Shown here: positions 1,643 through 24,837 of the stretch, piece by piece
Layout of the letters: each line of letters starts with the position of its first letter
How positions within the stretch are numbered: position 1 is the first letter of the stretch
Origin: Trichormus sp. M33_DOE_039
GTDB taxonomy: Bacteria; Cyanobacteriota; Cyanobacteriia; Cyanobacteriales; Nostocaceae
Length of the DNA stretch: 64,000 bases
Assembly: GCA_015296085.1 (NCBI GenBank)
Contig: DVDT01000021.1
Coordinates: 124,001 to 188,000 of the forward strand
Reading direction: 5' to 3'
Notes under the pieces: generated by a model
What the model was told of the DNA's origin: nothing
The model's input: only the letters and a program-made list of their open reading frames with translations
The model's database searches: none
Made by a program: the position numbers and the translations under genes

Positions 1643-4107
1643 TGCCCACCCTCCACAAGAAAGTCAATCCGACCGTTTTCGGGGGCGTTGGGGTCGTTGT
1701 CTAGTCGCGCAATTTCCCAACGTCCAAACTGAATTTCGCCAGATGCTAGTTCGCCATTCGCAGTCTGTCCCCAGCGTTGGAAACGGTGACGCTTGGAGGG
1801 TTGATTGCTGACATCTACCCACTGCACACCCGGTATAGCCATCGCTGTGGCAATTACTTGACTGAGATAAACAGGCTGACCGAAGGTAAAGTTATCGGGA
1901 TGGAAGAAACCCCGTTGTCCATTGACTAAATCTTGATTACTAAATGCTTGTAAGAGAACGGCTTTGACATCGTTGGCAAAGTACCCTGGTTTGACACAGA
2001 CACTAAATAGGATGTCTAGGGGGACAAAGCGGGGTGCATCTATTTCTAGGTCGTAGCCTGCCATGCGGTATTTTTCGAGGAATTGCCTTAATTCTTGCTC
2101 GAATTGGGCATCTACAGACTTACCGCCTTTGCGGTCAACGGTAATAAAGATGGTGTACCAACTGCCTGTCCAGCGACGAGTGGCGACTGCTTTTTGTACT
2201 TCTGGATGGCGTTCAGCTACACGGGCGTAATCTTCTGCCGTCACGGCTCGCTGCTGTACCCGAAAGGCTTGGGGGGCATCTAACTTAACTCGCTGCATGG
2301 CTTCTGGGTCACTCCCACCGATGCCAGGGAGACGGTTGGAAACGGTGATGATTCCAGTTAGGGTGGTAACAATATGGGCGATCGCTTCTGCGCCGATATT
2401 ACCGGCCCGACCATTACCAACACGGTAGGTAGCTTGCAACCAAGTGAAGGCGGCGGGGCGTTGACCAAATATATTGTCACCAAAACGCAGATATGCAGTG
2501 CGATCGCTGTTCATTTCTACCACAAAACCGGGGTCGAAGCGATCGCTGTTGAGTAGATCCCTACGAGGTTGCCATACTTCACCGGTATTACTTTGTAGGG
2601 TAACAGCAGGCAGTGCTTGGCGCGGGTCTTGTTGAATTAAGCTACTGGCAGGGCGTTGACTATCAACAAAGGCATTGTAGGGGATGCGATAGGTAATATT
2701 GGGTTCTGCTAAAGAGGGGCGATAACGTCGCCCTTCTGGGACTTGTGCTGGTATGGGTTGCTGCTGTGTCAGGGTTTGTCCGTGGTCTGCCAAGAGGATA
2801 TTCCCCCGTGCCACACTCATACTTTGTTGTAGCTGGCCGTCAATCACTTTGGAGAGACACAAGGTAAAAGGTAAAGCATCCTCCTCACGCCAGCGAATCT
2901 CTACGATGGGAACTTCTGTGAGTGGATCACGCGGTGCTACGGTAGGGATGCGTGTACCATCGGCAGTAATTTCGGCGGCGGGATGAACATCTGTGAGTCT
3001 GACTGCCCAACGGCGGGTAATATCAGCGTCTTCAATTCTGCCAGTCTCCGCCCCCAAGCGTTCTTCTAAAACCAAAACATCACCCGGAACTAAATGTAGG
3101 CGGTGAGTAAAATCATCTTGCAACGTTGCTTGTGTTGCACCTTTGGGTAAGCAGCAATTTTCATCACTCCAGGCATAAAACTGGATTTCGTTATGTCCTA
3201 TGTAAGTGTGGAGGGAGTGCATGGCCTCAAAGATGGCTGGCTGCTGCTGCAAAGTTTCCTGATATACCAAAGCATCGGAAATTTGGCTCGCTTGTCCAGA
3301 TACCCGCGTCAAAAACTGCGTGCTTGGGGGAATCACTAGGTTATCTACCTCTGATTGCACCTGTATCCAAGTCCGGGCATTGCAACCTTCGTGCATGAAG
3401 TAGTTCAACAATCGCCCATGTCGTTTGACAGAAGGGCGTTGTCTTGCTTTGTTGAACATGGCTTCGGTAGCCGCAGCATCTTGATAGTAGCTAAGATGGT
3501 CAGCTGCATAAGCCAGCACTTCAACTATAGCTATACCAACATCGGCAGGGTTTCTCGTTTGCCATTCTGGTAAGGTAATAGCCAGGCGATCAAGCATTAA
3601 GCGGCGGAAACTGGCGTAGTCTTTGGCGAGATAATCAATCTGCGGTGTCGGAAATTGGGCGGGTGGACAGTCGGGTGGTTGGGGACAGTCAAAATCGCTG
3701 GGACAGTTGGCTTTAAAGGAGAAAGGAATTGCTGCTAATTGGGCATCTAGGGGTGGAGTAAAACCACTGGGTAGACCATCATCAACGGGAGACTGTACTA
3801 GTTTCAGGGTATAGGTAGAAAAATCCCCTCGTTGATTGACCGTGATCTGTAAAACTTGAGGAGCATCTGCGATCGCTTCCACCCCAATCACACGGATATT
3901 CCTGACTCGCACACCGCCCACAATGGCAAAGTTATCTCTACCCAAAGGTGGAGCGGAATGGATAAAATGCACCGCCAGAATGGTTTGGTCTGCATTGACC
4001 ACCTCTAGATAATCTAAACCATTGAGTTTAGGCGTGCCATCACTGCGTTGTGTATCCCGAACTACTGCCCGACGGCGGAGATTTTGGCAGAAATACTGGG
4101 TTGTCAT
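1639..4107 (-). CDS. eCIS baseplate J-like protein (Afp11/gp6-like)
   Basis: Baseplate wedge protein of the contractile injection system, 822 residues. An N-terminal beta-rich region of about 130 residues is followed by a Cys/Pro linker (C135, C141, C147) and by the motif IDYLAKDYASFRRLMLDRL (from about 157), then LAYAADHLSYYQD, which mark the large baseplate J-type proteins of eCIS loci. The second half carries the J-like fold, including RFGDNIFGQRP, YRVGNGRAGNIGA and EDYARVAERHPEV. The ATG at 4107 has a GGAG Shine-Dalgarno with an 8-base spacer and sits one base after the gp25 stop; the 3' end overlaps the next gene by 4 bases, so translational coupling is likely. Length is normal for this eCIS family and longer than phage gpJ (about 300). 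Confidence 0.88.
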   Translation of the reverse strand: MTTQYFCQNLRRRAVVRDTQRSDGTPKLNGLDYLEVVNADQTILAVHFIHSAPPLGRDNFAIVGGVRVRNIRVIGVEAIADAPQVLQITVNQRGDFSTYTLKLVQSPVDDGLPSGFTPPLDAQLAAIPFSFKANCPSDFDCPQPPDCPPAQFPTPQIDYLAKDYASFRRLMLDRLAITLPEWQTRNPADVGIAIVEVLAYAADHLSYYQDAAATEAMFNKARQRPSVKRHGRLLNYFMHEGCNARTWIQVQSEVDNLVIPPSTQFLTRVSGQASQISDALVYQETLQQQPAIFEAMHSLHTYIGHNEIQFYAWSDENCCLPKGATQATLQDDFTHRLHLVPGDVLVLEERLGAETGRIEDADITRRWAVRLTDVHPAAEITADGTRIPTVAPRDPLTEVPIVEIRWREEDALPFTLCLSKVIDGQLQQSMSVARGNILLADHGQTLTQQQPIPAQVPEGRRYRPSLAEPNITYRIPYNAFVDSQRPASSLIQQDPRQALPAVTLQSNTGEVWQPRRDLLNSDRFDPGFVVEMNSDRTAYLRFGDNIFGQRPAAFTWLQATYRVGNGRAGNIGAEAIAHIVTTLTGIITVSNRLPGIGGSDPEAMQRVKLDAPQAFRVQQRAVTAEDYARVAERHPEVQKAVATRRWTGSWYTIFITVDRKGGKSVDAQFEQELRQFLEKYRMAGYDLEIDAPRFVPLDILFSVCVKPGYFANDVKAVLLQAFSNQDLVNGQRGFFHPDNFTFGQPVYLSQVIATAMAIPGVQWVDVSNQPSKRHRFQRWGQTANGELASGEIQFGRWEIARLDNDPNAPENGRIDFLVEGGQ

Positions 4108-4108
4108 C

Positions 4109-4465
4109 TCATAAACTCCGAGTAAACTGCTCAGTTCGACGTTCTTGGGTGCGTAATACTAAATACCGCACTGTTACGCGCAGGGTAGCATCTTCACTCA
4201 TAACTGCTACCCCTTCTACTTGAATTAACTCACCTAACCATTGTTGTAACGCTCCCTGCACCATGAATTGGGTAGCGGTTGCGAGTTCATCACTGTTACC
4301 TGCAAATAGCAGTTGCAGCAATCCACTGCCAAAATCGGGGCGATTGACACGTTCGCCAGGAGATGTAAACAAAACCTGCTCAATCAAATCGCAGATATGG
4401 TCGTGAGGATCAGTAGTGGCAGTGCGTCCTTGTAAGCTGATATGGAAGGGGTAGTCAATCGTCAC
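4109..4465 (-). CDS. gp25/GPW-family baseplate protein (Afp9-like)
   Basis: Small baseplate protein that in contractile tails helps initiate sheath assembly. The family signature is clear: ISLQGRTATTDPHDHICDLIEQVLFTSPGERVNRPDFGSGL, given here in part as LLFTSPGERVNRPDFG-type text (EQVLFTSPGERVNRPDFGS) with the conserved GERV.RPDFG core, followed by an amphipathic helix and a C-terminal strand. I start it at the GTG at 4463-4465 (118 residues) because GGAG lies 9 bases upstream; a TTG at 4486 would add MNSERSD, which is encoded by an interspersed repeat and recurs as MNSERSN in front of the hub gene. The next gene begins one base downstream. Confidence 0.9.
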   Translation of the reverse strand: MTIDYPFHISLQGRTATTDPHDHICDLIEQVLFTSPGERVNRPDFGSGLLQLLFAGNSDELATATQFMVQGALQQWLGELIQVEGVAVMSEDATLRVTVRYLVLRTQERRTEQFTRSL

Positions 4466-4500
4466 GTCGCTTCGCTCCGAATTCAAAATTCAAAATTCAT
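4463..4500 (-). repeat. Repeat-derived leader with Shine-Dalgarno, copy 1
   Basis: On the minus strand this reads a heptad-type run (TTTTGAATTTTGAATTC), then GGAGCGAAGCGAC, then GTG. An almost identical block (6747-6782) precedes the hub gene. The GGAG supplies a 9-base-spaced ribosome binding site to the GTG start in both places. Confidence 0.75.
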
Positions 4501-4709: not shown

Positions 4710-5045
4710 TCACACCCCTCTTACCCGTGTCTGGGTAGCGACAATATTCGGTGGCCCTTGCGGAATTTGTTCTGCACTCTGACAGATAGCTGTGCTGGTT
4801 TGCAAAATTACAGCTTGACCACTTACCCGCACCCGACTAGCAGGTACTAGCCACTGCACTGTTACACAAGGTTGAGGTTTAGCAACTGGGACAGTAAAAG
4901 CACAGCCAGCGATTAAATAAGTGTCGGTCAGAGTAGCCACGGGCTGACCACTGACTTTCACCCGCGCATTGCTAGATACGGTAGAAACAGTCCCACCGTG
5001 GGGACAAAGGGCGTTTGCACCTACATGAAAGACCAATCCCGACAT
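4710..5045 (-). CDS. PAAR-like spike tip protein (Afp10-like)
   Basis: Probable tip of the injection spike, 111 residues, adjacent to the gpV-like spike gene as in other contractile systems. The N-terminus GLVFHVGANALCPHGGTV and the two repeated elements RVKVSGQPVATL and RVRVSGQAVILQ are typical of PAAR-like/DUF4280-type tip proteins, with Cys and His (CPHGG, AGC, QPC, AICQ) positioned to bind a metal. The ATG at 5043-5045 overlaps the spike gene stop by one base (TGATG), and GAGGTGA lies just upstream, so this start is preferred to the TTG one codon earlier. Function is inferred from family and neighbours. Confidence 0.8.
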   Translation of the reverse strand: MSGLVFHVGANALCPHGGTVSTVSSNARVKVSGQPVATLTDTYLIAGCAFTVPVAKPQPCVTVQWLVPASRVRVSGQAVILQTSTAICQSAEQIPQGPPNIVATQTRVRGV

Positions 5046-5527
5046 CAAATCACCTCTAGTGCGCCGTTGTTAACTGAAACTTGGGGGCCTGTCAGCTGTA
5101 TCGTACTTTGACCGTTGGTAATCTCAATTCCCGTGGCAGAGATAGCAATCTTCATCCCCGCAGGAGTTTCAATGGTGATTCCGCCTGCCCCCGGCAAGTC
5201 ATTGAAGGTAATTGAGCCAGTATCGGTCTTCAAAACTTTGATTTCATCTTTGATAGGGATGGCGGGTGCTTCTCCTGTTCCCCAAAAACAGCCTGTCCAG
5301 ATGGGATAATCTGGATCACCGCCTTCAAACTCCACCCATAAATTTGCCCCGTTGGGGGGAATCGCAAAAAATCCTACCCCCACCCCAGCATAGGGAACGC
5401 AAGGCATTGCCCAACTATTGCGCCCTTCTCCCAACACCGCCGGCACACTCACCTGTAACCGACCTATTTTTTGGGGGTCGATGTTGTTTTCTACTTTACC
5501 GCGATACTTGCCAAAGAATTGTCTCAT
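5045..5527 (-). CDS. gpV/gp5-like spike protein, OB-fold (Afp8 C-terminal half)
   Basis: Central spike protein of the baseplate, 160 residues. The sequence FGKYRGKVENNIDPQKIGRL, VPYAGVGVGFFAIPPNGANLWVEF and GDPDYPIWTGCFWG is the OB-fold core shared by phage gpV, T4 gp5 and VgrG. After the OB domain come short beta repeats (IAISATGIEITNGQSTIQLTG), consistent with a trimeric beta-helix spike. In Afp8/VgrG this module is fused to a gp27/gpD-like hub; here the hub is a separate gene immediately upstream. No lysozyme or effector extension is present. The stop overlaps the PAAR-like start by one base. Confidence 0.9.
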   Translation of the reverse strand: MRQFFGKYRGKVENNIDPQKIGRLQVSVPAVLGEGRNSWAMPCVPYAGVGVGFFAIPPNGANLWVEFEGGDPDYPIWTGCFWGTGEAPAIPIKDEIKVLKTDTGSITFNDLPGAGGITIETPAGMKIAISATGIEITNGQSTIQLTGPQVSVNNGALEVI

Positions 5528-5609: not shown

Positions 5610-6749
5610 TCATACACTGACCGTTGGTAAAGCTGCCCCCAAGCCTTCCCGTGTGAGGGTAAATTGTTGCTTGTAGGCATCACCTGTAATTTTATGGGTA
5701 ACTTGTTTGACGTAATAAGTGCCGCTATAACTTAACCCTACACCGCGTAAATCTACGAGCGATCGCGCCCTTAATATGCCTCCATAACGGGCTGCGTTTA
5801 ATTCTCCTTCGGCTGTAATTACGGCATTGGTGGAAGCATCAGCACGGGCTTGGGCTTGAGCAAATGCCTGAATCACGTTCAAACCGTTGGCTCTGAGGAT
5901 TTCTCGTCCCGTTATCAGTAAATTACTCAAATCTGGAGGATTGGCAGATAATGCAGGTAGCAGGCTTGACAGGGAAACCACGGGTAATGTTTGGTTTGTC
6001 AACCGATCCTGCACTTGACCGATGATGCTTGTAGGACTGAGGGCATCGTTTTGAAAATTCAGCGTGTTGACATTACTATTAGCCCCCAAGTTATAGGACA
6101 ATGCCTTTTGCGGTATCCCTTGCCGGATTAATGGCCCCCAATAAGCAAAATTACTCCCTGGTGCAAGACCAGGAGTAACATAAAACACATAATTATGTCT
6201 TCGTGCCAGTTCAAGTAAATACACCAAATCGGTTGCTTGTTGTGTGGGAATCCGTTCGATGGGCGTGGGGATGTCTACCGTCGGCGGCGGAATGACTAGC
6301 GGAATTAGCCCGTATTGGGCATACTGACCAATAATTTTCAGGGCAATGATCGCTTCTGATTGGGCGGGGTGTTCGATGTTGCGTTCTTCTCGATCCATCA
6401 TGATGCTGATGTCTTCACCTGTGATGGTGAGTGTTGAACCGCTCGGTTCGTTACTAGGCGAAAGTTGCTGGTTGGTGATGATACCATCGATTAACACCTG
6501 GGGAACTGTGCCGAAACTCACCATCACTACAACTCGCGCTAAGGTTTTGAATTGAGGATTTTTTAGTAAGGCATAATCTAAAAAGTTGGCTTTGTTTTGT
6601 CCGACTTGAAAGATAATTTGAAAACCCGATCGCCCCTCATCGTTGTGGGTAATTTCTACACTCGCCAACGCTTCCATTACCTCGCGCGGAGGCGGAAATG
6701 GAACAGTAGGCCCTGCAAGTAATGTTAGGCGAATTCCTAGGGCTGTCAC
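5610..6749 (-). CDS. gpD/gp27-like baseplate hub protein
   Basis: Hub that links inner tube to spike, 379 residues from the chosen start. The features TLTITGEDISIMMDREERN, ATDLVYLLELARRHNYVFYV and GVGLSYSGTYYVKQVTHKI are characteristic of the late-control D / gp27 family. I start it at the GTG at 6747-6749: GGAG sits 9 bases upstream, exactly as for gp25, whereas the upstream TTG (6770) would add repeat-derived residues. It ends 82 bases before the spike gene. The separate hub and spike genes together equal the single Afp8/VgrG-type protein of other systems. Confidence 0.87.
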   Translation of the reverse strand: MTALGIRLTLLAGPTVPFPPPREVMEALASVEITHNDEGRSGFQIIFQVGQNKANFLDYALLKNPQFKTLARVVVMVSFGTVPQVLIDGIITNQQLSPSNEPSGSTLTITGEDISIMMDREERNIEHPAQSEAIIALKIIGQYAQYGLIPLVIPPPTVDIPTPIERIPTQQATDLVYLLELARRHNYVFYVTPGLAPGSNFAYWGPLIRQGIPQKALSYNLGANSNVNTLNFQNDALSPTSIIGQVQDRLTNQTLPVVSLSSLLPALSANPPDLSNLLITGREILRANGLNVIQAFAQAQARADASTNAVITAEGELNAARYGGILRARSLVDLRGVGLSYSGTYYVKQVTHKITGDAYKQQFTLTREGLGAALPTVSV

Positions 6750-6782
6750 GTTACTGCGCTCCGAATTCAAAATTCAAAACTC
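6747..6782 (-). repeat. Repeat-derived leader with Shine-Dalgarno, copy 2
   Basis: Nearly the same block as 4463-4500: TTTTGAATTTTGAATTC, GGAGCG, then GTG at the same distance. It provides the ribosome binding site of the hub gene. Confidence 0.75.
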
Positions 6783-7011: not shown

Positions 7012-7305
7012 TTAGAAACTTTGTGGTAAACCAATACGTAACCTGCGACCAATTGGAGTCATTAAATCATGAGGATTCATGACATTGTTGGTGTCGCATA
7101 CTCGCCAATATTCTTCTGAATTTCCCAATGTGCGTGCTGTTACCAAATCCAGGCGATCGCCCGCGGTGACGGTCACTTCTGTTAATGTTGGCATCACATC
7201 CGCATCGGGAAGAAATCGCCGACGGACGTAGGAAATTTGTCGCCCATCTTTGGTATTCTTGTTTACGATTGCGAGAGTATAATAACGGCTGTTTAATTCA
7301 AACAT
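7012..7305 (-). CDS. Small LysM-like tail protein (Afp7 C-terminal half)
   Basis: A 97-residue protein with a LysM-type module: TVTAGDRLDLVTARTLGNSEEYWRV, followed by a turn and MTPIGRRLRIGLP. In contractile systems such a module (phage gpX, gp53, Afp7 C-terminus) joins the tube initiator to the hub rather than binding cell wall. It lies 9 bases after the CIS-tube gene and upstream of the hub, matching that role. The ATG at 7305 is the only sensible start. About 240 bases separate it from the hub gene; I saw no other gene in that spacer. Confidence 0.8.
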   Translation of the reverse strand: MFELNSRYYTLAIVNKNTKDGRQISYVRRRFLPDADVMPTLTEVTVTAGDRLDLVTARTLGNSEEYWRVCDTNNVMNPHDLMTPIGRRLRIGLPQSF

Positions 7306-7314
7306 AGGGTTTGT

Positions 7315-7968
7315 TCACAATAAGTTAAGGTTGCTACCCGTGACGGCATCTAAATTGTTAACTCGTCCTAAGTTTGCCATCGTTTCTTTAATAATTTGAT
7401 GAGATAAAAACAGATGATATCCACGATTGTTAGCAGATAGATCGTTATAACTCAGCACCCTTAGTCCTAACGAAATTTTGGCGCGAATCGGGTTTAAATT
7501 CACATCATGGGCTTCTTCAGTAATGCTAAATTCGTTAATTCGTACAGGCACAACCCTGCGTTCACCCCAAATTAGTAAAGTCAATGGTGCAATTGGTGGC
7601 GTAATCTGAATTGTGCCTAATGACAGCAAACGTTCATTTAAAACGATCAGATTGCTGGGTGGATAAAGTAATATTTCCAGTGCCGACAGTCGAGGATAAA
7701 TCCCCATCTGCACGGCATTAGATTGACCAGTCTCTAAATCATCCGTGGCATCTAATTCAATTTCCAACTTGATAGATTCTACAGGTGCGCCCTTGAGCCG
7801 CAGTGCTTCTGTAGTATCTCCTTCTTCGCCTGCTGCTTGCAGTTCCAATGTGCGATTCACTGTCCCAGGATTGTATTGAAACGGAATCACAATTGGATTA
7901 GGCTGCTCCTCATCTAAGGCAACGATCGCCCCTTTTAATAATCTCGGTGCGCCAGGAAATGTTGTCAT
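7315..7968 (-). CDS. Contractile injection system tube-initiator protein (Afp7 N-terminal half)
   Basis: 217-residue protein resembling the CIS-tube domain at the N-terminus of Afp7-type proteins: VIPFQYNPGTVNRTLEL near residue 26, then VESIKLEIELDATD, a YPPSNL segment and LLIWGERRVVPVRINEFSITE, ending in LGLRVLSYND. Such proteins start the inner tube on the baseplate. The LysM module normally fused to it is encoded by the following separate gene, 9 bases downstream. The ATG at 7968 opens after a 241-base spacer that follows the DUF4157 gene. Confidence 0.82.
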   Translation of the reverse strand: MTTFPGAPRLLKGAIVALDEEQPNPIVIPFQYNPGTVNRTLELQAAGEEGDTTEALRLKGAPVESIKLEIELDATDDLETGQSNAVQMGIYPRLSALEILLYPPSNLIVLNERLLSLGTIQITPPIAPLTLLIWGERRVVPVRINEFSITEEAHDVNLNPIRAKISLGLRVLSYNDLSANNRGYHLFLSHQIIKETMANLGRVNNLDAVTGSNLNLL

Positions 7969-8209: not shown

Positions 8210-11200
8210 CTAACTAAGTGGATTACCGTTTTCATTATCTAGGAAAGGCTTGATTTCTGTTCCATCTCGCATTGAGCGTGCGCCTGGATTTCCTGCTTCT
8301 GCAAGTTCACTGATAAAGCCAGATTCCACAAAGTCTACATACCGATTTTCCTCTCGCGCCCCCTTGGAACGATTGTAGGCGGATGTAACCACATCGTCCT
8401 CATCTACGTCAAAATAAAAGTCTCTCCGGTCATTATCATTAATGTTATTACCTGATCCATTCCAATGCGATACCACGGAAGGGTTATGATCTAGATCATA
8501 GTCAGTTCTGTACACATCTTGTTGCTTAAACTGGATAATTTGAGCGTCATCAGGAATGAGATGATTCGCTTTCAATTGTCGCCAAAGCTCAAAATCGTTT
8601 GTGTTATTTGCTCTTCCAACATCATCTGCTATTTGCCTTTGTTTTCTCTCTACAATTGGGTCTCGGAAGTTTTGCCAAGACCTTCCGCGTTCATAGAGGT
8701 TAGGACGAATCCAACGCCCCTTCCGACAACTTCTAGGTAAAAAGCGTGGGCCATTATAATCGGGAGCAAAAAGTGCATCTAAACCTTTGACTCCAGGTTC
8801 TCTAAAAGCAATTCTCATAATTCGTACTAGTTCATTAATACGAACTTCGACGTATTGCTGAAACGGTTCTGGTTGACCTGCTGCTCTCCATGATTGCAGA
8901 ATAGCTGTTTCAGTAAATTCTGTGCGTGCGTTTCCCAATTGACTTTTTAGGCTACTCCATCGTTGGAGGTTTTGGATACCGCCACCACGTCTTGCTTTAT
9001 TCTCCTCTTGTTCAACTTCTGCGATTGCCGCATCAAGAATATTCAGCAAAGGGCCTCGACGACGGCTATTAATGATAATTTCTACATTTCTTCCCTGCAC
9101 TGATGCACTAATTGTGTGTTGTTCTTGAGACAGAGTAACGGGTTTATCAATTGGCCCAGTTGCAGAAGTATCATCGCTATCAGCGGACTGTTGGGATGGT
9201 GCTGGAGTTGATTGGCCTCCACCTCTAAAGGTTTGCCCAATGCGACGGATGAGATTGACGATCGCATTTTCAATTCGTTCTCGAATATCGCTGATAATTT
9301 GACGGACACGATTAGCAATTCCGCCAATCCCCAGCAAGTTAGCCAAAAACGAAATCGCTACGGGTAAAAGACTGGCCAGGGTTTGTTCCACACGTTGGGC
9401 GGCTGGCTCAATTACGCCGTTGACGATTTGGGCTAAACCTTCGACAATTGTTTGCACGATTTGGATCAGGTTTTGCAAATTATCTCTGAGGAAGGTGTAG
9501 ATATTCCACGCTGTCAGAACTAGCTGGACAATTGCCCCAACAGGATTAAACAAAGATACCAGCTTGGTAATTGCTGCGGTAATAATCTGCGTCAGTAAGA
9601 ATTCTTTAATCTGGTCTAGTACCATGTCGCGCAGGTTGGCGAGATCCTGGGTTATTTGCTCAAATAAAGCTGACCAACCATCTGTAATCAGGGTTTGCAC
9701 ATAGTTCCAGACAAATTCAATCCGTTCTACGTTGCGTTCACCCAAAATTCTCACCGCAATCCGCCGGATGAGATCGCCCGTAAGTCCGAGAATCTGACGC
9801 ACCAAATCAAGTACACCCAGCAAGTTAAATTCCTGGGGAATTTGAATGTCCCCTAAAGCCCCAGTCAGCCAACCAATAATACCTGCTTGCAAGTGAGTCA
9901 GGAAATTATCAGCAAAATTCTGCACGCCCAAGACTACAGCATCGAGCAAGTTACTTACAAAACTGCCAGGATCGTCGATAATCGCTTGAAAGGTGTCGCT
10001 AATCTGACCGATAAAAGCGTAAAATTCTGCGGGGTCAATACCAATAACTTTTAATACAGCTTCTAATACCAACCGCGCCAAAGCACCCCAATCACCGGTG
10101 AGGACAGCCTGCATAATGTTGATGGCAAACTCTAACCCAGCTTGCAGCACGTCTAGCACGGCGTTGAGTCCGGCTCTTAAGCCTTCAACTAAAGCATTAA
10201 TTCCGGCTTTAAGTTCTGCTGCTACTGCGTCTACGGCTTGCTGTGCTAACTCAACTGCTTGGTCAATAAAACGGTTGAGTGCGGCTGCAAGTTCCGGGAA
10301 TATTTCACCTAAAAGATTATCTACTAAAGCTTTGAGAAAATCACCGAAGGCTGCGATCGCTTCTTTAATAAAGTTAGCAGCTGCATCAATTAAAGCTTCC
10401 GCCGCCGCTTTCACTGCATCAAGAATACTATTAATTGCCTCTCGCACAGCATTAAAAATAGCTGTAATCGCACTTGTAAGGGCTGCAAAAGCTTCACGAA
10501 CAAAGCTTACAGCCCGATCCCACCAGCTTTGATTCTCGGCTTCGCGTTCGGCTGCGCGGCGACGCTCTTCAGCACGTTCTTCGCCCGTGTTGACTTCGGC
10601 TTGTGCGTCCCGTTCTGCTTGTTGATAGTCTGTGCGAATTTGCGCTTGGTCATCTTGGACGCGGGTAGCAATATCATCGCGATCGCTGCGGCGTTGGTCT
10701 TCTGATTCCTGCTCAATATCTGCGACGGCTTGAGATTGTTGTTGGAGGGTGTTTTGTCGCTCGCTCTGAATTTGTTCTCGCTGTGCTTGTACGGCCTGTC
10801 TTTGGTCTGTGTCAGCCTGTAGAGTTTGCGCTTGTGCCTCAGATTGGGCTTGGTCTAGTTGCTCCTGTCTGGCTTGGTCTCGTGCATCTGTAACTTGATG
10901 GATTTGGCTTTGAGCTTCACCTAAACTGCTCTGCATCACCTCCTGCTGATTTTGATCAAAGGCGGTTTCCACTTCGGGGGGTAATCCCATTTGGGTGTAA
11001 GCTGCAACATCCTCCACAGGTTGGGGGGATGCTACAGCCAAGGTATTGATTTCTCCTAGGGGTATTTCCTCATTCATCACTAGGGGCTGTACCCGTTCTG
11101 GCCCAGGGCCTGTCAGTACTTCTTGTTGTGCCTGCTGGCGCGAGTGATCAGCTTGTTCAACACCGGCTTGCAATTGGTTATCAATGCGTTCTGGGTCAGT

Positions 11201-12655
11201 TTCCCCCTCTAAAGGTACAGCCGGAGCTTCTCCTGGGGAAGTGTCCACCTCTTCATCTGTGGTGCGTACTTGATTGAGCGTATCGCCGATTTCGGTGGCG
11301 CGGTCAGTATTCGGATCGGGCGAAAGTCTTGATAATGCCTGCAAAATAGCATTATTGGCAGTGTATGCGGTGGGGTCTGGCGTGGGGGGAATATCGGGGT
11401 CTGGGGCGGGGTCTGGTGGTGTCTGTTCGAGGGATACATCTTCCTGCGGCGGTGCGTTCACCTGGAGTTCTGGCAGTTCATCGGTTTCACCAGATAACTC
11501 AGCCGTGAAGGTAGGAACTTCTGCTTGGAAGGTATTGTTTTCTTCGTTGGCAAGACGATCCAAATCCGACCCTAAAGTGTCGTATTGCTTCGCTTTGAGA
11601 GTTGGAGGAGCAGTAGCATAGGCATCCACTAATTCATCGACATCGGCAGCATCAGCTAGAGCCGTTTCTGCTGCGGCTAATTCCGCTTCTCTGGCGGCGA
11701 CATCTTCGGCAGTAATTCCTGGTTCTGGCGGGGCTGGAGGTTCGAGGGCAGGTACTTCTTCCAAATCGCCACCAACTGCTGCTATTTCTGAGCCTTCTAA
11801 GCTAGCTTCTGTTTGCTCTTGGGCTGTGGATTCTGGTGTTTCTGTGGTTGTGGGCGGGGCTGGGGTTTCGGTTTGCTCAACGGTGGCAGCAAAGCGATCG
11901 CTAGGAGGTGCTGTTTCACCAACGGTGGGTGGTGGCACTTCCCGTAGTAAGGCGATCGTCTGGGGTGAAATGGCTGTGTTGACCTGGATAGGTGCAGCGT
12001 CGGCATCCGGTTGCACAACCTTGGCGGTGAGACGGGTTGCTTCTTGTTCTGCGCTGGCTGTTGTAGGTAAAATCACTGCTGCGGATGGTGACGACTCGGC
12101 ACTAGCCTGCATCGCGTGAATGACTTCATGGGCGATGGTTGCTAAGTCAGGGTCGGTATCAGCCAGAATAATCGTCTCATTGTAGGTGGCAGCACTGGCT
12201 TGTAAGGTTTCCAGCGTGGCAGCAATTTCTGGTGTGCCAGCGTAGACGGTGAGGTGATCTAAGGATGTACCCAAACGGCTCTCTAGTATGGGGCTGTAGG
12301 GTAGGGGTATGGGTGTGGTTTCCTGGGTGGCGTTTTGGATTAGCGATCGCGGATCGTGGAGAGGGGCAGGGGGTAGGCAGGGGGAAGCAGGGGAGGTAGG
12401 GGAGGTAGGGGAGGAATAGCGATCAGATATTTCTAAGGCAGGCTGGGCGACTGTGTTTTGGTCGTCTGCGGGTAGTGACTGTGGTGGTGTTAATTCTGCA
12501 TCAGTGTGGGGTTCTCTATGTGTAACTACTTTTTCTAAAAGAGATGAGGGTGTTTTTAATAACTGGGATTTCTGAGTTTGTGGTGGCTGGGGCGATCGCT
12601 TGTGGGGTTCTGTTTTAGTTTTGGCTGGTGATTTTCTAGCAACGGCGATTTTCAT
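8210..12655 (-). CDS. Giant DUF4157 (eCIS core) protein with C-terminal HNH/EndoVII-like nuclease motif; candidate effector
   Basis: 1481 residues from the ATG at 12653-12655, which overlaps the upstream stop as ATGA (a TTG three codons earlier is less likely). Parts: disordered Pro/Ser-rich N-terminus (1-115); DUF4157 domain ending in HEVIHAMQ at 176-183, the HExxH zinc-protease-like motif; acidic Pro/Glu-rich linker (about 190-540); Gln/Arg coiled coil (about 565-710); long Ala/Leu/Ile amphipathic helices (about 712-1140), which include a segment often shared among DUF4157 proteins (FNPVGAIVQ, PVAISFLANLLGIGG); linker; C-terminal domain (about 1290-1481). The C-terminus has YDLDH (D1389, H1390), HW (1397), RR (1410) and YNRSKG (N1428, K1431), the spacing of HNH/EndoVII-type toxin nucleases. 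DUF4157 is known to mark eCIS-linked cargo; cargo role and nuclease activity here are inferred. The helical core could also act as tape measure. Confidence 0.82.
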   Translation of the reverse strand: MKIAVARKSPAKTKTEPHKRSPQPPQTQKSQLLKTPSSLLEKVVTHREPHTDAELTPPQSLPADDQNTVAQPALEISDRYSSPTSPTSPASPCLPPAPLHDPRSLIQNATQETTPIPLPYSPILESRLGTSLDHLTVYAGTPEIAATLETLQASAATYNETIILADTDPDLATIAHEVIHAMQASAESSPSAAVILPTTASAEQEATRLTAKVVQPDADAAPIQVNTAISPQTIALLREVPPPTVGETAPPSDRFAATVEQTETPAPPTTTETPESTAQEQTEASLEGSEIAAVGGDLEEVPALEPPAPPEPGITAEDVAAREAELAAAETALADAADVDELVDAYATAPPTLKAKQYDTLGSDLDRLANEENNTFQAEVPTFTAELSGETDELPELQVNAPPQEDVSLEQTPPDPAPDPDIPPTPDPTAYTANNAILQALSRLSPDPNTDRATEIGDTLNQVRTTDEEVDTSPGEAPAVPLEGETDPERIDNQLQAGVEQADHSRQQAQQEVLTGPGPERVQPLVMNEEIPLGEINTLAVASPQPVEDVAAYTQMGLPPEVETAFDQNQQEVMQSSLGEAQSQIHQVTDARDQARQEQLDQAQSEAQAQTLQADTDQRQAVQAQREQIQSERQNTLQQQSQAVADIEQESEDQRRSDRDDIATRVQDDQAQIRTDYQQAERDAQAEVNTGEERAEERRRAAEREAENQSWWDRAVSFVREAFAALTSAITAIFNAVREAINSILDAVKAAAEALIDAAANFIKEAIAAFGDFLKALVDNLLGEIFPELAAALNRFIDQAVELAQQAVDAVAAELKAGINALVEGLRAGLNAVLDVLQAGLEFAINIMQAVLTGDWGALARLVLEAVLKVIGIDPAEFYAFIGQISDTFQAIIDDPGSFVSNLLDAVVLGVQNFADNFLTHLQAGIIGWLTGALGDIQIPQEFNLLGVLDLVRQILGLTGDLIRRIAVRILGERNVERIEFVWNYVQTLITDGWSALFEQITQDLANLRDMVLDQIKEFLLTQIITAAITKLVSLFNPVGAIVQLVLTAWNIYTFLRDNLQNLIQIVQTIVEGLAQIVNGVIEPAAQRVEQTLASLLPVAISFLANLLGIGGIANRVRQIISDIRERIENAIVNLIRRIGQTFRGGGQSTPAPSQQSADSDDTSATGPIDKPVTLSQEQHTISASVQGRNVEIIINSRRRGPLLNILDAAIAEVEQEENKARRGGGIQNLQRWSSLKSQLGNARTEFTETAILQSWRAAGQPEPFQQYVEVRINELVRIMRIAFREPGVKGLDALFAPDYNGPRFLPRSCRKGRWIRPNLYERGRSWQNFRDPIVERKQRQIADDVGRANNTNDFELWRQLKANHLIPDDAQIIQFKQQDVYRTDYDLDHNPSVVSHWNGSGNNINDNDRRDFYFDVDEDDVVTSAYNRSKGAREENRYVDFVESGFISELAEAGNPGARSMRDGTEIKPFLDNENGNPLS
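12362..12414 (-). repeat. Purine-rich repeat inside the effector reading frame
   Basis: GGGGAGGTA units repeat here; read on the minus strand they encode SPTSPTSPASP-type text in the disordered N-terminus. The same repeat family occurs in non-coding DNA at 4550-4590, so this looks like a repeat tolerated within a linker. Confidence 0.6.
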
Positions 12656-12918
12656 ATTTGCCAAGCTCCATACATCGCTTGAGCAATGTGCATACCCATT
12701 GCTTCGGGACTCATGCTGCGTGTAACTTCAAAGCTGCCGCCGTCAAGGTGCTGTTGATGGGATGATTGCACGATGGCGGGGGGAATACCGACCTCGGTGA
12801 ATAGACGAGTTAATTCGGTAGTCAAGGCTATTTGCAGGCGATCGCTATCTTGTGGTGCAATGCCTGTCACAATCAGTTCCGTAATCTCTAATTCCAAGTT
12901 GACTGAGTTTAGATCCAT
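12652..12918 (-). CDS. Small conserved-type eCIS protein, function unknown
   Basis: 88 residues, acidic, no motif that I recognise as catalytic. It overlaps the ATPase gene by 10 bases at its start and the DUF4157 gene by 3 bases (ATGA) at its end, so it is almost certainly translated with them. The text VNLELEITELIVTGIAPQD followed by an alpha-helical LQIALTTELTRLF and a C-terminal helix SPEAMGMHIAQAMYGAW suggests a small alpha/beta protein. Short genes of this type between the AAA+ ATPase and the DUF4157 protein occur in other eCIS loci; a chaperone or adaptor for the DUF4157 protein is possible but unproven. Confidence 0.72.
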   Translation of the reverse strand: MDLNSVNLELEITELIVTGIAPQDSDRLQIALTTELTRLFTEVGIPPAIVQSSHQQHLDGGSFEVTRSMSPEAMGMHIAQAMYGAWQI

Positions 12919-14831
12919 CCCCGCACCTCTGCATCTGCTAAGGGTTTTTCTAGCTTGGCATATTCACTTTGGGTTGCCCGCAGAATGTGTCGCATCTGTA
13001 CGGGTTGCTGCTCGGCTGCTGCCAAAAATGCGGCGTTGAGGGCGATATTACGAATATTACCACCTGCTACATTCAGCCGTGCTAGTTTAGCAAAATCTAA
13101 ATCTGCAACTGGAGTTTGAGGGGGAAACATTCGCTGCCAAATTTCCATCCGTTGCAATACATCAGGAAAGGGAAAGGGAATCACAAAGCGGATGCGGCGC
13201 AGAAATGCGACATCAATGGCGTTTTTGAAATTAGTCGTCAGAATTGCGAGTCCACCGTAGGATTCCATCCGTTGCAGCAGGTAGCTGACTTCAATATTGG
13301 CATGGCGATCGTGAGAGTCTTTAACTTCGCTGCGTTTGCCGAACAAAGCGTCAGCTTCATCGAACAGTAAAATTACGCCTCCCGCTTCTGCGGCATCAAA
13401 AATCCGCCGCAGATTTTTCTCAGTTTCGCCAATATATTTACTGACAACTGAACTCAGGTCAATCCGGTAGAGGTCAAGCTGTAACTCCTGGGCGAGAATT
13501 TCCGCCGCCATTGTTTTCCCTGTACCACTACCACCAGCAAACAGAGTAGTAATACCCAATCCGCGTTGGCTATTATTGCCAAATCCCCAGGTTTGGTAAA
13601 CCTGCGATCGCTGTTGTACACTGACAACAATTTCCCGGAGTGTCTGCTTTTGCGGTTCGGGTAGGATTAAATCCATCCACGTTGCTACAGCTTCAATGCG
13701 TTGGGCGAGGTCATCTAATTGGGTACGGGCTTGTTGACGGCAAGTTTGCCATAACTGATAGCTAAAAGATGCCGATGCTGTATTTTTCTGTAATATCAAT
13801 TCGCTAGCTTGCTGAATCCCTTCCGGCTCTAGGTTAAATTGGCTGACGATTTGTGCCAATTGCCCGTTGAGGGATTGTGCGGCTGCTCCCAAGGCTAATT
13901 GCCAGAGTGCTTCCTGTTCATTGGCATTGGGGCGATGAACATCAAACCGTACTACTGTTCGTCGCCGTAAGCGCAGGGGTTCTATAGATGCTACAAATCC
14001 CATACCAGACAGGGATTGCAGAAAACTGATTAAAGTTCGCTGCTGGTGATGATCGCCTGCATCACTAGCATCGATCAATAAAGCACTGCCACTGAGAATC
14101 GCTTCCCGCTCCCAAAGAATTCGTAGGGTTTCTCGCTCATGCACAACTGTGGGAATATCTGCGGCGTTGAGGCTATACATCCGGATGCCCAAACTTTGAC
14201 AGGTGGTGGCAGCAATAGCTTCATGGCTACTCATATTTGCACCACACAAATTAATTAGCGGATAGGCAGGCGATCGCTTCTGTTTCCACAACTGCTGAAT
14301 CTGGTCTACAGTCGCTTGATGGGAGGGCGGTAAGTTGACCTGGGTGAAAATGGGGGTGACAAGTCCGTACAGTTTTTGATCGAGGTAAGCCACACCCATG
14401 AGGTAATGTAAAATGCGCTCATCAATCCGCAGTGGGCTAGTAACTAGGGTTTCTGCTGCTTCTATGTGGATTAACCGCCAATGACGTAAGGGAGCAGTAG
14501 GAGTGAGAGCATCCCAATGAGGTTGGGGTAAAGCAGCCAATGCTAGTTGAAAAGTTGGGGCGGAACGGTTGATTAAAGTTGCCACTAAACTGGCCAATTC
14601 CGGCTCTAGTTCTATACCAGCACAGAGTAATAAAAGTTGTCGTTCAAATGCGGAAAGTTTGAAGACGCGGCACAGAATTTCTAAGGCGGGTAGAGGTTCA
14701 GGTAAATCGGGAGGTGGTGCAGCCGTTGATTCCTGCTGGGCGTAAATTTTCAGACAATGATGCACCTCCGCTAGAGCTGCTTGCAGGTAGCGATGATTGA
14801 TGATAGACCAGGGAGGAGCATTAGGTTTCAT
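12909..14831 (-). CDS. AAA+ ATPase (Afp15-like)
   Basis: 640 residues. The C-terminal AAA+ module has Walker A GGSGTGKT (433-440), Walker B ILLFDEAD (487-494), a sensor region AILTTNFKNAID and arginine finger candidates in FLRRIRFVIPFP. The N-terminal 390 residues contain a second, degenerate ATPase-like half (LLIDASDAGD near 251) without a Walker A, so this is a two-lobed protein with one active site. Every eCIS locus carries such an ATPase; Afp15 is thought to act in particle assembly or cargo handling. It starts at the ATG at 14831, 71 bases after the cap gene. Confidence 0.9.
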   Translation of the reverse strand: MKPNAPPWSIINHRYLQAALAEVHHCLKIYAQQESTAAPPPDLPEPLPALEILCRVFKLSAFERQLLLLCAGIELEPELASLVATLINRSAPTFQLALAALPQPHWDALTPTAPLRHWRLIHIEAAETLVTSPLRIDERILHYLMGVAYLDQKLYGLVTPIFTQVNLPPSHQATVDQIQQLWKQKRSPAYPLINLCGANMSSHEAIAATTCQSLGIRMYSLNAADIPTVVHERETLRILWEREAILSGSALLIDASDAGDHHQQRTLISFLQSLSGMGFVASIEPLRLRRRTVVRFDVHRPNANEQEALWQLALGAAAQSLNGQLAQIVSQFNLEPEGIQQASELILQKNTASASFSYQLWQTCRQQARTQLDDLAQRIEAVATWMDLILPEPQKQTLREIVVSVQQRSQVYQTWGFGNNSQRGLGITTLFAGGSGTGKTMAAEILAQELQLDLYRIDLSSVVSKYIGETEKNLRRIFDAAEAGGVILLFDEADALFGKRSEVKDSHDRHANIEVSYLLQRMESYGGLAILTTNFKNAIDVAFLRRIRFVIPFPFPDVLQRMEIWQRMFPPQTPVADLDFAKLARLNVAGGNIRNIALNAAFLAAAEQQPVQMRHILRATQSEYAKLEKPLADAEVRGWI

Positions 14832-17846: not shown

Positions 17847-18371
17847 CTACTCAGGAATATTAAACGATAGCTCTTGCGGTTCTGTGACATCCACATCACG
17901 TTCCCAACCTTCATTTTGCAAGGTGAGCATTTGAATTGCGATCGCATTGGCGTTGGCATCCAGTTCAGGCAGGGATTGGTATTCAGATACCCAACAACGA
18001 TAGACTTTATAGGCGATCGCTAATTGTCCGGCTTCGTTGTAGACTTCGATGATGATGTCTTTACGGAAATCTCGCAGAGATACTTCTGCGCCCAATCCAG
18101 CCCCATAACTCCAGATTTTATTTGCCCATCGTTCAAACTCTAAATCGTGGGTCACTCCTCTCTCCAAGGCGATCGGTTCATACTTGGTTTGTCCAGGAGA
18201 TTTCAGTACAGTGCTAGGCAAACCGCCTTCTCGATGTTCAATCACCTCAGTTGTGCGCTTGAGCATCCCTACTTTACTCACTCCAGCAACATAGCGACCA
18301 TCCCACTTCACTCGAAACTTGAAATTCTTATAAGGGTCAAGACGACCAGCATTGACACTAAATTGAGCCAT
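17847..18371 (-). CDS. Inner tube protein (gp19/Afp1-like)
   Basis: 174 residues, the hexameric inner tube through which cargo passes. Recognised by DPYKNFKFRVKWDGRYVAGV, the TEVIEHREGG element, SPGQTKYEPIALERGVTHD and a C-terminal MLTLQNEGWERD strand, the pattern of phage tail tube / Hcp-like proteins in eCIS. The ATG at 18371 has GGAAG six to seven bases upstream. Only one tube gene is present here, whereas Afp and PVC loci have two or more. It follows the sheath gene by 94 bases, so both are probably on one transcript. Confidence 0.92.
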   Translation of the reverse strand: MAQFSVNAGRLDPYKNFKFRVKWDGRYVAGVSKVGMLKRTTEVIEHREGGLPSTVLKSPGQTKYEPIALERGVTHDLEFERWANKIWSYGAGLGAEVSLRDFRKDIIIEVYNEAGQLAIAYKVYRCWVSEYQSLPELDANANAIAIQMLTLQNEGWERDVDVTEPQELSFNIPE

Positions 18372-22510: not shown

Positions 22511-23356
22511 TTACAAAGCATCAACTCTAGATTCAATTACACTTTGAACAGATGAAGAGACTTGAGAAAGCAAGTTGTAACCTGTGGCTGATTCAATGGA
22601 GTCAACAGAGACTCTGTAGTTTCTCCAATTTGAGTTTACGTTTTGTGCATTAGGTATATTCACAGTAATTACTCTTGTGTTGTTGGTGACACTGCTAGCA
22701 CCAGAATTTGGTCTATCTAAGACTACAATCACCTTCCAAGTTCTGTTAGGGACTGTAACATTACCATTATCAATTGTGGTTCTATATCCATTAGAACCCG
22801 TGCCACCAGTACCATAAGAACCCGCAATAATATAGAGTTCTTTATTTTGGTTTCTCACCAAATCTCGACAATAATTTTCTAGATTTGCCCAAACAACCTG
22901 GTTGTTATTAGGTGCTTGGGGTATCATATTGGTCATCAAGAATGTAGCTGAATTATTGGTAGTAGTATTTGTTCTGTCTGCTGAGGGAGCCATGTGTCCC
23001 CTATCAAAGCCACTACCACTATAAGAACTACCACTAACTCGATAGCAGCCTGAAGGTAATGTTGTATCTGCACGGAAATCATCTTGGCGATCTGTGCTTC
23101 CTAACCATGATGTGTTCAATTGCCAACTTACCCAGTTTGGTGTCCCTCTATAGCAGTTATGCGAGGTTGCGTACTGGGGTTTAACTAATAAAAGATTGCT
23201 GTAGCTAGTGTTAGCACCACTAGGATTTCCCATTGTTAAATGAACACTAACCGAACTTTGAGCTGTGAGTGGTTTTTGTAGGTAATTAAACAGAGTGAAA
23301 AACACTGCTACGCCAGTAATAGGTATAGCAACCCTGAAAATTTGAGATTTCTTCAT
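22511..23356 (-). CDS. nucA: Secreted DNA/RNA non-specific endonuclease (NucA family)
   Basis: Extracellular beta-beta-alpha-metal (ββα-Me) nuclease that degrades DNA and RNA. 281 residues from the ATG at 23354-23356, giving a signal peptide: MKKSQIFRV, hydrophobic AIPITGVAVFFTLF, then a probable cleavage region around LTAQSSV. The catalytic motif SGFDRGHMAPSADR (general-base His in DRGH) is followed by ATFLMTNMIPQAPNNN and WANLENYCRDLV, the metal-binding Asn helix. The whole length parallels the Anabaena NucA that I know. Its cognate inhibitor type, NuiA, is encoded at 28370-28771. A longer TTG-started frame would bury the signal peptide. Confidence 0.95.
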   Translation of the reverse strand: MKKSQIFRVAIPITGVAVFFTLFNYLQKPLTAQSSVSVHLTMGNPSGANTSYSNLLLVKPQYATSHNCYRGTPNWVSWQLNTSWLGSTDRQDDFRADTTLPSGCYRVSGSSYSGSGFDRGHMAPSADRTNTTTNNSATFLMTNMIPQAPNNNQVVWANLENYCRDLVRNQNKELYIIAGSYGTGGTGSNGYRTTIDNGNVTVPNRTWKVIVVLDRPNSGASSVTNNTRVITVNIPNAQNVNSNWRNYRVSVDSIESATGYNLLSQVSSSVQSVIESRVDAL

Positions 23357-23695
23357 GTTGGGATACTTGTAAATACGGGATAAATTGATTTCTGCGGTGA
23401 TTACAGAAATAACTTCAAATGCAGCGATCAAGTTTTAGCTCTGTTTTGATAAAATTAAGTAAAGGTTGTATCAAGGAAATATTAAAAATAGTATTTTTCT
23501 TAGTATTTTTGCAGTCTTAATTATTAAATAAATTTCTCTTAATAGGAAATTGTCAATTCTTTAACCTGGAATTATGTCCAATGACGATTGCACTGTGCAG
23601 CATGGTAGGCGATCGCATCATCACTACCTACCCTCAAATTGAGCCGATAGTTCAACAGCTATCTGCAAATTTTATTTATGCAGCAATAGATAATA
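23357..23695. other. Spacer between nuclease and TIR-TPR genes
   Basis: About 340 A/T-rich bases upstream of the nuclease gene, so it should carry that promoter, though no clear one was identified. The right part holds a possible 41-codon plus-strand frame (listed separately). Confidence 0.4.
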
Positions 23696-24799: not shown

Positions 24800-24837
24800 A
24801 GAGAATAGGGCAAGATTCGGGCTGATTTAAAAGTGAA

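What the first reader, a model, noticed from the sequence alone, without database searches (positions are those of the whole stretch)
8210..12655. Giant eCIS-linked DUF4157 protein ends in an HNH/EndoVII-like nuclease site
Directly seen: HEVIHAMQ zinc-protease-like motif in DUF4157, long coiled coil, about 430 residues of amphipathic helices, and a C-terminus with DH (1389-1390), HW (1397-1398), RR (1410-1411) and N...KG (1428-1432). DUF4157 is known to mark eCIS cargo. The inference is that this is a cargo protein that cuts nucleic acid after delivery, or that the peptidase-like domain releases the nuclease. No immunity gene follows within 240 bases, which would fit an intracellular particle that acts on the producing filament itself (as proposed for thylakoid-anchored systems in Anabaena) rather than on rivals.
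Basis: partly seen in the sequence, partly recalled or inferred. Interest (0 to 1): 0.85.

Follow-up and report, generated by a model that had tools for sequence, protein, structure and literature searches.

The report
Injection-machine cargo with nuclease-like tip
A cyanobacterium carries, inside a gene cluster for a phage-tail-like injection machine, a giant cargo protein whose exchangeable end looks like a known kind of nucleic-acid-cutting toxin, and whose long middle part holds a helical domain shared with toxins of several bacterial phyla.

Summary
The C-terminal ~110 aa align with nine relatives (cyanobacterial CIS effectors, a Bacteroidales DUF6531 protein, a PAAR protein); His1390, Trp1398, Gly1402 and Asn1428 are invariant. 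A profile of eight other cores finds the window core at 58.9 bits (best of 500 shuffles 10.0). Some relatives reach or approach Pfam GH-E or GmrSD_C, both HNH-type; the window protein matches neither. Structure prediction failed (pLDDT 35 for the window tip, 39 for a relative). HNH/EndoVII is thus well supported by sequence, not by fold; activity is untested. The N-terminal eCIS_core domain is very divergent. The trunk holds a ~277-aa core found before different tips in five phyla. Its likeness to phage tape measures is largely helix periodicity (the reversed trunk scores too), and clusters of the same lineage without this core argue against an obligatory ruler. Best reading: Tme-like CIS cargo with an HNH-type tip. 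Release by the peptidase is untested; the thylakoid-anchored comparison is not supported; self against neighbour targeting is open.

The parts
8210..12655 (-). Giant CIS cargo protein, 1481 aa from ATG 12655 (in-frame TTG at 12664)
12098..12340 (-). Divergent eCIS_core/DUF4157 domain (residues 106-186 from ATG)
   Evidence: no Pfam hit; local profile 9.6 bits, E 0.024, below HMMER's inclusion threshold but above 400 shuffles (best 5.7), aligned 1-86 of 88; hhalign probability 83.6, E 8e-6
12116..12130 (-). HEVIH, zinc-peptidase-like motif
10520..10969 (-). Coiled-coil-like charged stretch (about residues 563-712)
   Evidence: weak SMC-type NCBIfam hits; composition
9215..10519 (-). Amphipathic helical trunk (residues 713-1147)
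   Evidence: mean helical moment 0.37-0.47, best Kyte-Doolittle window 1.99; tape-measure PHROG hits that the reversed sequence also gives
9215..10039 (-). Conserved trunk core (residues 873-1147)
   Evidence: 275-284 aa in 24 of 24 aligned proteins; tblastn to 35 plasmid records; profile hits 7 of 7 plasmid loci fetched from those hits, none of 392 reversed sequences at E 1
8210..8881 (-). C-terminal tip (about residues 1259-1481)
   Evidence: homologues in L031 and L056 over most of the tip
8360..8503 (-). HNH/EndoVII-like core: DH 8486-8491, HW 8462-8467, RR 8423-8428, N..KG 8360-8374
   Evidence: alignment A6; leave-one-out profiles and hhalign to a GH-E set
12652..12918 (-). 88-aa protein p88 overlapping the effector ATG by 4 nt (ATGA); possible loading adaptor
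   Evidence: homologues in 8 of 31 other loci, 6 of the 8 overlapping the next ORF by 4 nt; only a chance-level Pfam match
12909..14831 (-). AAA ATPase of the CIS cluster (Pvc15-like name from gene order)
   Evidence: Pfam AAA
14903..16288 (-). Pvc16-like terminator
   Evidence: Pfam Pvc16_N
17847..18371 (-). Inner tube protein
   Evidence: Pfam Phage_T4_gp19; nearest solved chain Anabaena All3324
18466..21036 (-). Sheath
   Evidence: Pfam Phage_sheath_1; nearest solved chain 8bky
7315..7968 (-). Structural gene next downstream of the effector (217 aa; tube-initiator role inferred from gene order)
   Evidence: 34 of 388 class genomes, own included, carry a homologue at E 1e-20
7012..7305 (-). 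97-aa baseplate-region gene (LysM-type name recalled from gene order)
   Evidence: no Pfam hit
5610..6770 (-). VgrG-like spike protein
   Evidence: NCBIfam VgrG_rel, 26 bits, far below its cut-off; no Pfam hit
5045..5527 (-). Phage_base_V protein
4710..5048 (-). PAAR-like tip protein
   Evidence: DUF4280 and PAAR matches below cut-off
4109..4486 (-). gp25-like baseplate wedge
1639..4107 (-). Baseplate J protein
   Evidence: nearest solved chain 9gtp, S. coelicolor CIS

Best explanation
This is cargo of a contractile injection system, built like the tape-measure-related effector Tme of Streptomyces davawensis but with an HNH/EndoVII-type nuclease in place of Tme's EndA-like one. Shown by sequence: place inside the CIS cluster, 4-nt overlap with p88, a divergent eCIS_core domain, a trunk core shared across phyla, and an HNH-family tip. 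Inferred: p88 and eCIS_core help load the protein at the spike/tube-initiator end; the coiled coil lies in the tube lumen; on contraction the protein is ejected, the amphipathic core inserts into or crosses a membrane, and the tip cuts nucleic acid with His1390 as general base and Asp1389 and Asn1428 at the metal site. Whether the victim is the producing filament or a neighbour is undecided.
For: Tip: leave-one-out profiles recover 9 of 9 cores far above 500 shuffles each (window 58.9 bits against 10.0); hhalign of the family to five GH-E candidates gives probability 95.9, E 5e-9, and hmmsearch finds 3 of those 5 above all shuffles. Of nine tips given to Pfam, four match an HNH-type family at E 0.01: GH-E 23.4 and 21.9 bits (cut-off 25), GmrSD_C 24.3 (cut-off 23) and 16.9; a tenth, L090, was found by GH-E at 25.5 bits. 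The domain also ends a Bacteroidales DUF6531 protein and a PAAR protein, both of toxin-carrier type. Related tips in L034, L063 and L059 are followed after 9 nt by homologous genes, a likely immunity family. Cargo: the gene lies between p88 and baseplate genes, where related clusters hold other DUF4157 proteins. Tip exchange: 24 proteins share the trunk core, but their last 150 aa fall into 15 clusters; 8 of 21 other tips match Endonuclea_NS_2 (that this is the EndA/DRGH type is recalled). Literature: Tme's C-terminal domain degraded DNA and was toxic, its His mutant was not (passages).
Against: The window tip alone matches no HNH family in Pfam and no NCBIfam family and no PDB sequence beyond chance. 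Five of nine tips match no HNH family in Pfam (window, L031, L056, L034, L063), and the tip profile misses the two strongest GH-E candidates, L061 and L088. Both AlphaFold2 runs failed. The central Asn of many HNH sites is not obvious (the window reads DEDDVV where L031 has NNLRVV). The HW histidine is Arg in L031 and Tyr in L090. There are no expression or delivery data.
Confidence: 0.7

Rival explanations
1. The protein is the tape measure of this particle: the trunk sets tube length and the tip is a passenger.
For: The window trunk hits tape-measure PHROGs (best 4.3e-16); tblastn of the core against 50,697 phage records gives two hits, both annotated tape measures (E 4e-3 and 9e-3); a sub-threshold Tape_meas_lam_C match (18.8 bits, cut-off 23) lies in the core of L057; by eye no other long helical ORF in the cluster.
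Against: The reversed trunk hits the same PHROG at 3.8e-11. Three relatives (L031, L057, L034) hit no tape-measure PHROG. The core profile misses both phage tape measures at E 1. Of 31 other loci five have an ORF with the core at E 1e-3, three strongly, one of these (L150, same protein as L040) a member of the profile (several loci are contig ends, and each is a stretch of 18 kb or less). Slot genes of 327-497 aa occur in several clusters. A paper says S. coelicolor particles are identical in length although the cluster has no tape-measure gene (passage).
Confidence: 0.12
2. It is a self-directed executioner: the particle is intracellular, fires in the producer under stress, and the nuclease degrades the producer's own DNA, so no immunity gene is needed.
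For: No adjacent immunity gene; the partner family of related tips was not found in the genome; sheath and baseplate J nearest the cytoplasmic cell-death CIS of S. coelicolor; in S. davawensis the Tme nuclease accounts for CIS effects on the producer's colony.
Against: Many CIS toxins lack immunity genes. The tube is nearest Anabaena. The S. davawensis CIS is placed in a clade distant from that of S. coelicolor, so the nearest solved structure is a coarse guide. A DUF6519/beta-helix protein follows the baseplate genes and could be a fibre. Five of eight HNH-tipped genes have partner genes.
Confidence: 0.33
3. The tip is a degenerate or non-catalytic HNH relative.
For: No clear central Asn; no curated model is matched.
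Against: His1390, Trp1398, Gly1402 and Asn1428 are kept in 10 of 10 sequences that are 20-32% identical to it.
Confidence: 0.13
4. The HExxH domain is an active peptidase that frees the tip after delivery.
For: HEVIH is kept in a very divergent domain; a passage of Zhang 2012 calls most versions of a HExxH domain with PVC export releasing peptidases (PMC3482391).
Against: Growth inhibition by Cgo1 was independent of the motif (passage); no third zinc ligand or cleavage site was tested here.
Confidence: 0.2

Closest known systems
Tme, tape-measure-related effector of Streptomyces davawensis (PMC11126660; passages and the first part of the Results seen)
   Same: Large DUF4157 protein with coiled coil, hydrophobic helices and C-terminal nuclease, encoded just upstream of baseplate genes
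   Different: Tip is HNH-type, not EndA-type; eCIS_core far more divergent; 1481 aa against about 2247; no direct alignment to Tme was made here
Sle1/Sle2 of Streptomyces lividans (PMC13277306; abstract and three sections seen)
   Same: Tape-measure-like carrier with varied C-terminus, tied to a DUF4157 protein
   Different: There DUF4157 is in a separate protein; here it is fused. A split arrangement was seen here in Paraburkholderia (L175). No direct alignment to Sle1 was made
Tox-GH-E and other HNH/EndoVII toxins of polymorphic toxin systems (PMC3482391, passages; Pfam PF14410)
   Same: HNH/EndoVII-type core at the C-terminus; Zhang 2012 lists GH-E with PVC export and PVC-metallopeptidase
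   Different: Window has DH where the family has GH and does not match the Pfam model; it has an extra part of about 110 residues before the core, aligned with L031 and L056 and only weakly elsewhere
Anabaena thylakoid-anchored CIS with Alr3312/Alr3311 (PMC8894136, passages)
   Same: Cyanobacterial CIS with DUF4157 proteins as putative effectors
   Different: Effector genes lie beside that cluster by locus number; sheath here is nearer S. coelicolor, tube nearer Anabaena

Membership tests
eCIS_core / DUF4157 (PF13699) | Match above the Pfam gathering score (22 bits) | tested here: not met
   0 families at E 1; five of five relatives scanned score 87-116 bits
eCIS_core / DUF4157 (PF13699) | Collinear domain ending in HExxH near the N-terminus | tested here: met
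   local profile aligned 1-86 of 88 but weak (9.6 bits, E 0.024); hhalign 83.6%
Tme-like effectors | N-terminal DUF4157, relatively long ORF, synteny upstream of baseplate genes (as defined in PMC11126660) | tested here: met
   second longest ORF of the cluster, after the 1665-aa ORF in L032
Tme-like effectors | Homology to phage tape-measure proteins | tested here: inconclusive
   PHROG hits, but the reversed control also hits; core profile misses two phage tape measures; weak tblastn
Tme-like effectors | EndA-like nuclease tip (Tme itself) | tested here: not met
   window tip is HNH-type; Endonuclea_NS_2 tips occur in 8 of 21 other tips
HNH/EndoVII superfamily | [D/E/G]H ... N motif with family-level profile similarity | tested here: met
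   3 of 5 GH-E candidates found by hmmsearch, 2 missed
HNH/EndoVII superfamily | beta-beta-alpha metal finger fold | tested here: inconclusive
   AlphaFold2 pLDDT 35 (window tip) and 39 (L063 tip)
HNH/EndoVII superfamily | Metal-dependent nucleic acid cleavage | not testable with these tools
   needs an enzyme assay
GH-E (PF14410) | Gathering score 25 bits | tested here: not met
   window no hit; relatives 23.4, 21.9 and 17 bits; L090 25.5 bits
Polymorphic toxin system | Constant carrier with varied C-terminal toxins | tested here: met
   24 proteins, one trunk core, 15 tip clusters
Polymorphic toxin system | Adjacent immunity gene | tested here: not met
   none in the window; candidate partner genes beside 5 of 8 HNH-tipped genes, window included
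Thylakoid-anchored CIS | Structural proteins closest to Anabaena's | tested here: inconclusive
   sheath and baseplate J nearest S. coelicolor, tube nearest Anabaena
Thylakoid-anchored CIS | Cis19 crown and Cis11 extension; membrane anchoring | not tested
   no Anabaena sequence was compared apart from the PDB searches

The most novel reading that the evidence does not exclude
The trunk core is a delivery domain of about 277 residues, not described in what I searched, common to CIS-type toxins of Cyanobacteria, Actinomycetota, Deinococcota, Bacteroidota and Pseudomonadota, that carries exchangeable toxins through a membrane; in this cyanobacterium it carries an HNH nuclease with no immunity gene, used by a Streptomyces-type cytoplasmic particle to kill its own cells.
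Probability: 0.23. Interest if true: 0.75.

Novelty: new variant of a known kind. Interest (0 to 1): 0.52.

Why it matters
Geller 2021 remarks on very long linkers between DUF4157 and CIS toxin domains, and leaves the role of DUF4157 open (passage). The data here show that part of such a linker is a definable, conserved domain that stays while toxins change, with and without DUF4157 in the same protein. That gives a sequence handle to find CIS toxins that DUF4157-based screens can miss, and a testable candidate for the membrane-crossing step. The HNH tip adds a nuclease class to Tme-like carriers.

Tried and rejected
Structure prediction: A5 (window tip first) gave pLDDT 35, A7 (L063 tip first) 39, three sequences each, so no fold search was run. 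Scans for the tip in viral contigs: A1 gave 0 relatives of 36 pattern matches, L063 tip 0 of 5, L084 tip 1 of 17, the same contig as L084. DNA patterns in viral contigs: 21 stretches, one relative, L084; 3 stretches, of which L086 and L087 were not examined; 19 stretches, 18 new, none alike by eye. Genome contigs: A1 0 of 76, A4 1 of 24, L063. The tip profile in 388 class genomes gave 4: own, G174, G269 and a weak one in G489 (E 0.008), in an ORF that by eye looks like a GmrSD/DUF262-type protein. tblastn of the tip in phages found nothing. Tape-measure identity was considered first and downgraded after the reversed control and the slot survey. PDB search of tip and tip profile gave only chance hits. 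Tip clustering on the whole region after the trunk gave 5 clusters, merged through linker sequence, and was replaced by the last 150 aa (15 clusters) and 200 aa (13). The 24 proteins were chosen by me: window, 17 from loci (which lists 34 places; partial or weakly aligned ones were dropped), two of L031, and L056, L057, L059, L063. Five of the seven in the HNH cluster came from tip searches or the plasmid that one of them led to, so its size says nothing about frequency. The eCIS_core profile was built from the 21 of 23 relatives that hold HELTH, so that motif is a selection, not a result.
Full report
What is there. The stated interval holds one long ORF on the minus strand. The ATG overlaps the stop of an 88-aa ORF (p88) as ATGA. 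p88 homologues occur in 8 of 31 other loci, and in 6 of these 8 the next ORF overlaps by 4 nt. The gene lies in a contractile injection system cluster: sheath, tube, Pvc16-like terminator, AAA ATPase, p88, this gene, then baseplate-side genes. Beyond the window the cluster goes on with a second baseplate J protein, a Tail_P2_I protein and a 1665-aa DUF6519/beta-helix protein. At E 0.001 the held genome has one match to this protein, itself.

The tip. hmmscan of the window protein or its tip finds no HNH family. tblastn found a plasmid homologue in Oscillatoria nigro-viridis over 94% of the tip (28.8%, E 2e-14). Further homologues came from unnamed cyanobacterial genomes (G085, G174, G269, G231), Limnofasciculus baicalensis, a second gene on the Oscillatoria plasmid, a Parabacteroides plasmid gene annotated DUF6531, and a PAAR protein on an IMG/VR contig. 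In ten aligned cores His1390, Trp1398, Gly1402 and Asn1428 are invariant; Asp1389 is D or E in 9, His1397 is kept in 8, and Asn1399, Arg1410, Gly1432 and Tyr1439 in 9 each. Leave-one-out profiles recovered nine of nine cores, the window at 58.9 bits against 10.0 for the best of 500 shuffles. Of nine tips scanned with Pfam, four match HNH-type families at E 0.01: G269 (GH-E 23.4 bits, cut-off 25), the PAAR protein (GH-E 21.9), Parabacteroides (GmrSD_C 24.3, cut-off 23; GH-E 17) and the second Oscillatoria gene (GmrSD_C 16.9); window, L031, L056, L034 and L063 match none. L090 (G231) was found by GH-E at 25.5 bits. hhalign of the nine-core family to five GH-E candidates gave probability 95.9; hmmsearch found three of the five above all shuffles and missed L061 and L088, the two best GH-E members. 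This is good sequence evidence for the HNH/EndoVII superfamily and weaker evidence for GH-E itself. Against it: the central Asn is unclear, and two structure predictions failed (window tip 35, L063 tip 39). Window, L031 and L056 align over an extra part of about 110 residues before the core; L031 and G269 also align weakly there.

Partner genes. Counting the window, eight cyanobacterial genes carry this tip after the trunk. Five have a same-strand ORF starting 9-21 nt after the stop: both Oscillatoria genes, G085 and L063, G231. The partners of G085 and L063 are 70% identical and related to that of the second Oscillatoria gene (E about 1e-12 to 1e-14), which points to an immunity family. Three have no such gene: the window (no frame open beyond 37 codons), G174 (only a 49-aa ORF 58 nt on) and G269 (only a 62-aa frame that overlaps the effector's end). 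The G085 partner has no match in the window's genome; the tool notes that an empty answer alone shows nothing.

The N-terminus. The window has HEVIH and no Pfam hit; five relatives scanned have eCIS_core at 87-116 bits. A profile of 21 relatives, selected by their HELTH motif, places the domain at residues 106-186 with 9.6 bits (E 0.024, under HMMER's inclusion threshold, but above 400 shuffles, best 5.7), and hhalign gives 83.6%. With the same profile 36 ORFs of the 32 loci score at E 1e-3; the window protein is not among them. I call it a divergent eCIS_core domain. Zinc binding and peptidase activity are untested.

The trunk. A whole-protein search in 149 related genomes found matches in 28, own included, mostly through the trunk. 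In 24 chosen proteins the stretch matching residues 873-1147 is 275-284 aa long although its start ranges from residue 190 to 1145; the last 150 residues fall into 15 clusters. tblastn of this core hit 35 plasmid records from Streptomyces, Deinococcus, Aureibacter, rhizobia, Paraburkholderia and Oscillatoria (20 of the 35 are Streptomyces, many of one species). A profile from the 24 hit all 7 plasmid loci that I fetched from those hits, at 243-385 bits over nearly its full length, and none of 392 reversed sequences at E 1. Annotated products of these genes include a DddA-like deaminase toxin, a polymorphic toxin type 15 and a DNA/RNA non-specific endonuclease. The eCIS_core profile was found in the same protein in two of the seven, in an adjacent ORF in one, and not in ORFs of the fetched stretches in the other four. 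Pfam on six trunk-bearing proteins gave nothing above cut-off on the core; sub-threshold matches were Tape_meas_lam_C inside the core of L057 (18.8 bits, cut-off 23) and an Apolipoprotein match overlapping the core of L034. NCBIfam was run on the window trunk only.

Tape measure or not. The window trunk hits tape-measure PHROGs (best 4.3e-16), but the reversed trunk hits the same family at 3.8e-11; of three class-preserving shuffles one gave a weak tape-measure hit (0.001), and a plain shuffle none. Three relatives hit no tape-measure PHROG. So much of the signal is helix periodicity. Against 50,697 phage records two weak matches appear, both annotated tape measures, and the core profile does not find them at E 1. 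In clusters with a homologue of the next downstream gene (34 of 388 genomes) the slot before that gene holds DUF4157 proteins of very different length, several under 500 aa (16 loci printed); in 31 other loci the core is found in five, strongly in three, one of which is a member of the profile. Several of these loci are contig ends, so absence is not proven for each. A ruler role that every such particle needs is unlikely; a fixed cargo module is the better reading. That agrees in architecture with Tme and Sle1, whose authors infer descent from tape-measure proteins (passages and sections read).

Which particle. The sheath is closest among solved chains to 8bky (256.8 bits), baseplate J to 9gtp (59.6 bits); papers name both as S. 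coelicolor CIS structures. The tube is closest to Anabaena All3324 (59.5 bits); spike, terminator and the 217-aa protein match no solved chain at E 0.01 or 0.001. The S. davawensis CIS itself is placed in a clade distant from that of S. coelicolor (section read). The window's system is thus not clearly of the thylakoid-anchored type; a cytoplasmic, cell-death type is a fair alternative, undecided here.

Verdict. The finding is real and the nuclease reading is probably right. It is a variant of Tme-like polymorphic CIS effectors. The part of most general interest is the trunk core. Searches of the open-access library (listings) and the passages read from eight papers did not show a description of that domain or of an HNH tip on a cyanobacterial Tme-like protein. 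Subscription papers and supplements were not seen, and Zhang 2012 lists GH-E toxins with PVC-metallopeptidases.

Noticed in passing
L041:7667-12493 (G005): A trunk-bearing DUF4157 protein whose tip matches a BMT5-like rRNA methyltransferase (E 1e-37), an unusual tip for a CIS effector.
   Followed up: partly
L034:6313-9290 (G085): Downstream of an HNH-tipped effector and its partner gene lies a 501-aa ORF that starts inside the trunk core and ends in a different tip, followed by another small ORF: it looks like a displaced tip cassette.
   Followed up: partly
window 12652-12918: p88, a small protein found just upstream of CIS effectors in several clusters, with only a chance-level Pfam match; possible loading adaptor.
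   Followed up: partly
L175:6277-10971 (Paraburkholderia plasmid): eCIS_core in one ORF and trunk core plus tip in the next, a split like Sle2/Sle1.
   Followed up: partly
L084:1-1617 (IMG/VR contig): A PAAR protein with the same HNH-type tip on a contig filed as viral.
   Followed up: partly
window 22511-23431: A predicted nuclease with a DRGH motif lies about 1.5 kb from the sheath gene, with a truB-like ORF between; seen by eye, not tested.
   Followed up: no
window 23696-25566: Two neighbouring ORFs whose N-termini look like TIR domains (by eye), one with TPR-like repeats.
   Followed up: no
L173:11509-17564 (Aureibacter plasmid): Three genes of equal length (1386 bp) alternate with shorter ORFs after a trunk-bearing endonuclease gene, perhaps a partner-gene array.
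   Followed up: no
L032:9031-14028: 1665-aa DUF6519/beta-helix protein after the baseplate genes; possible fibre.
   Followed up: no
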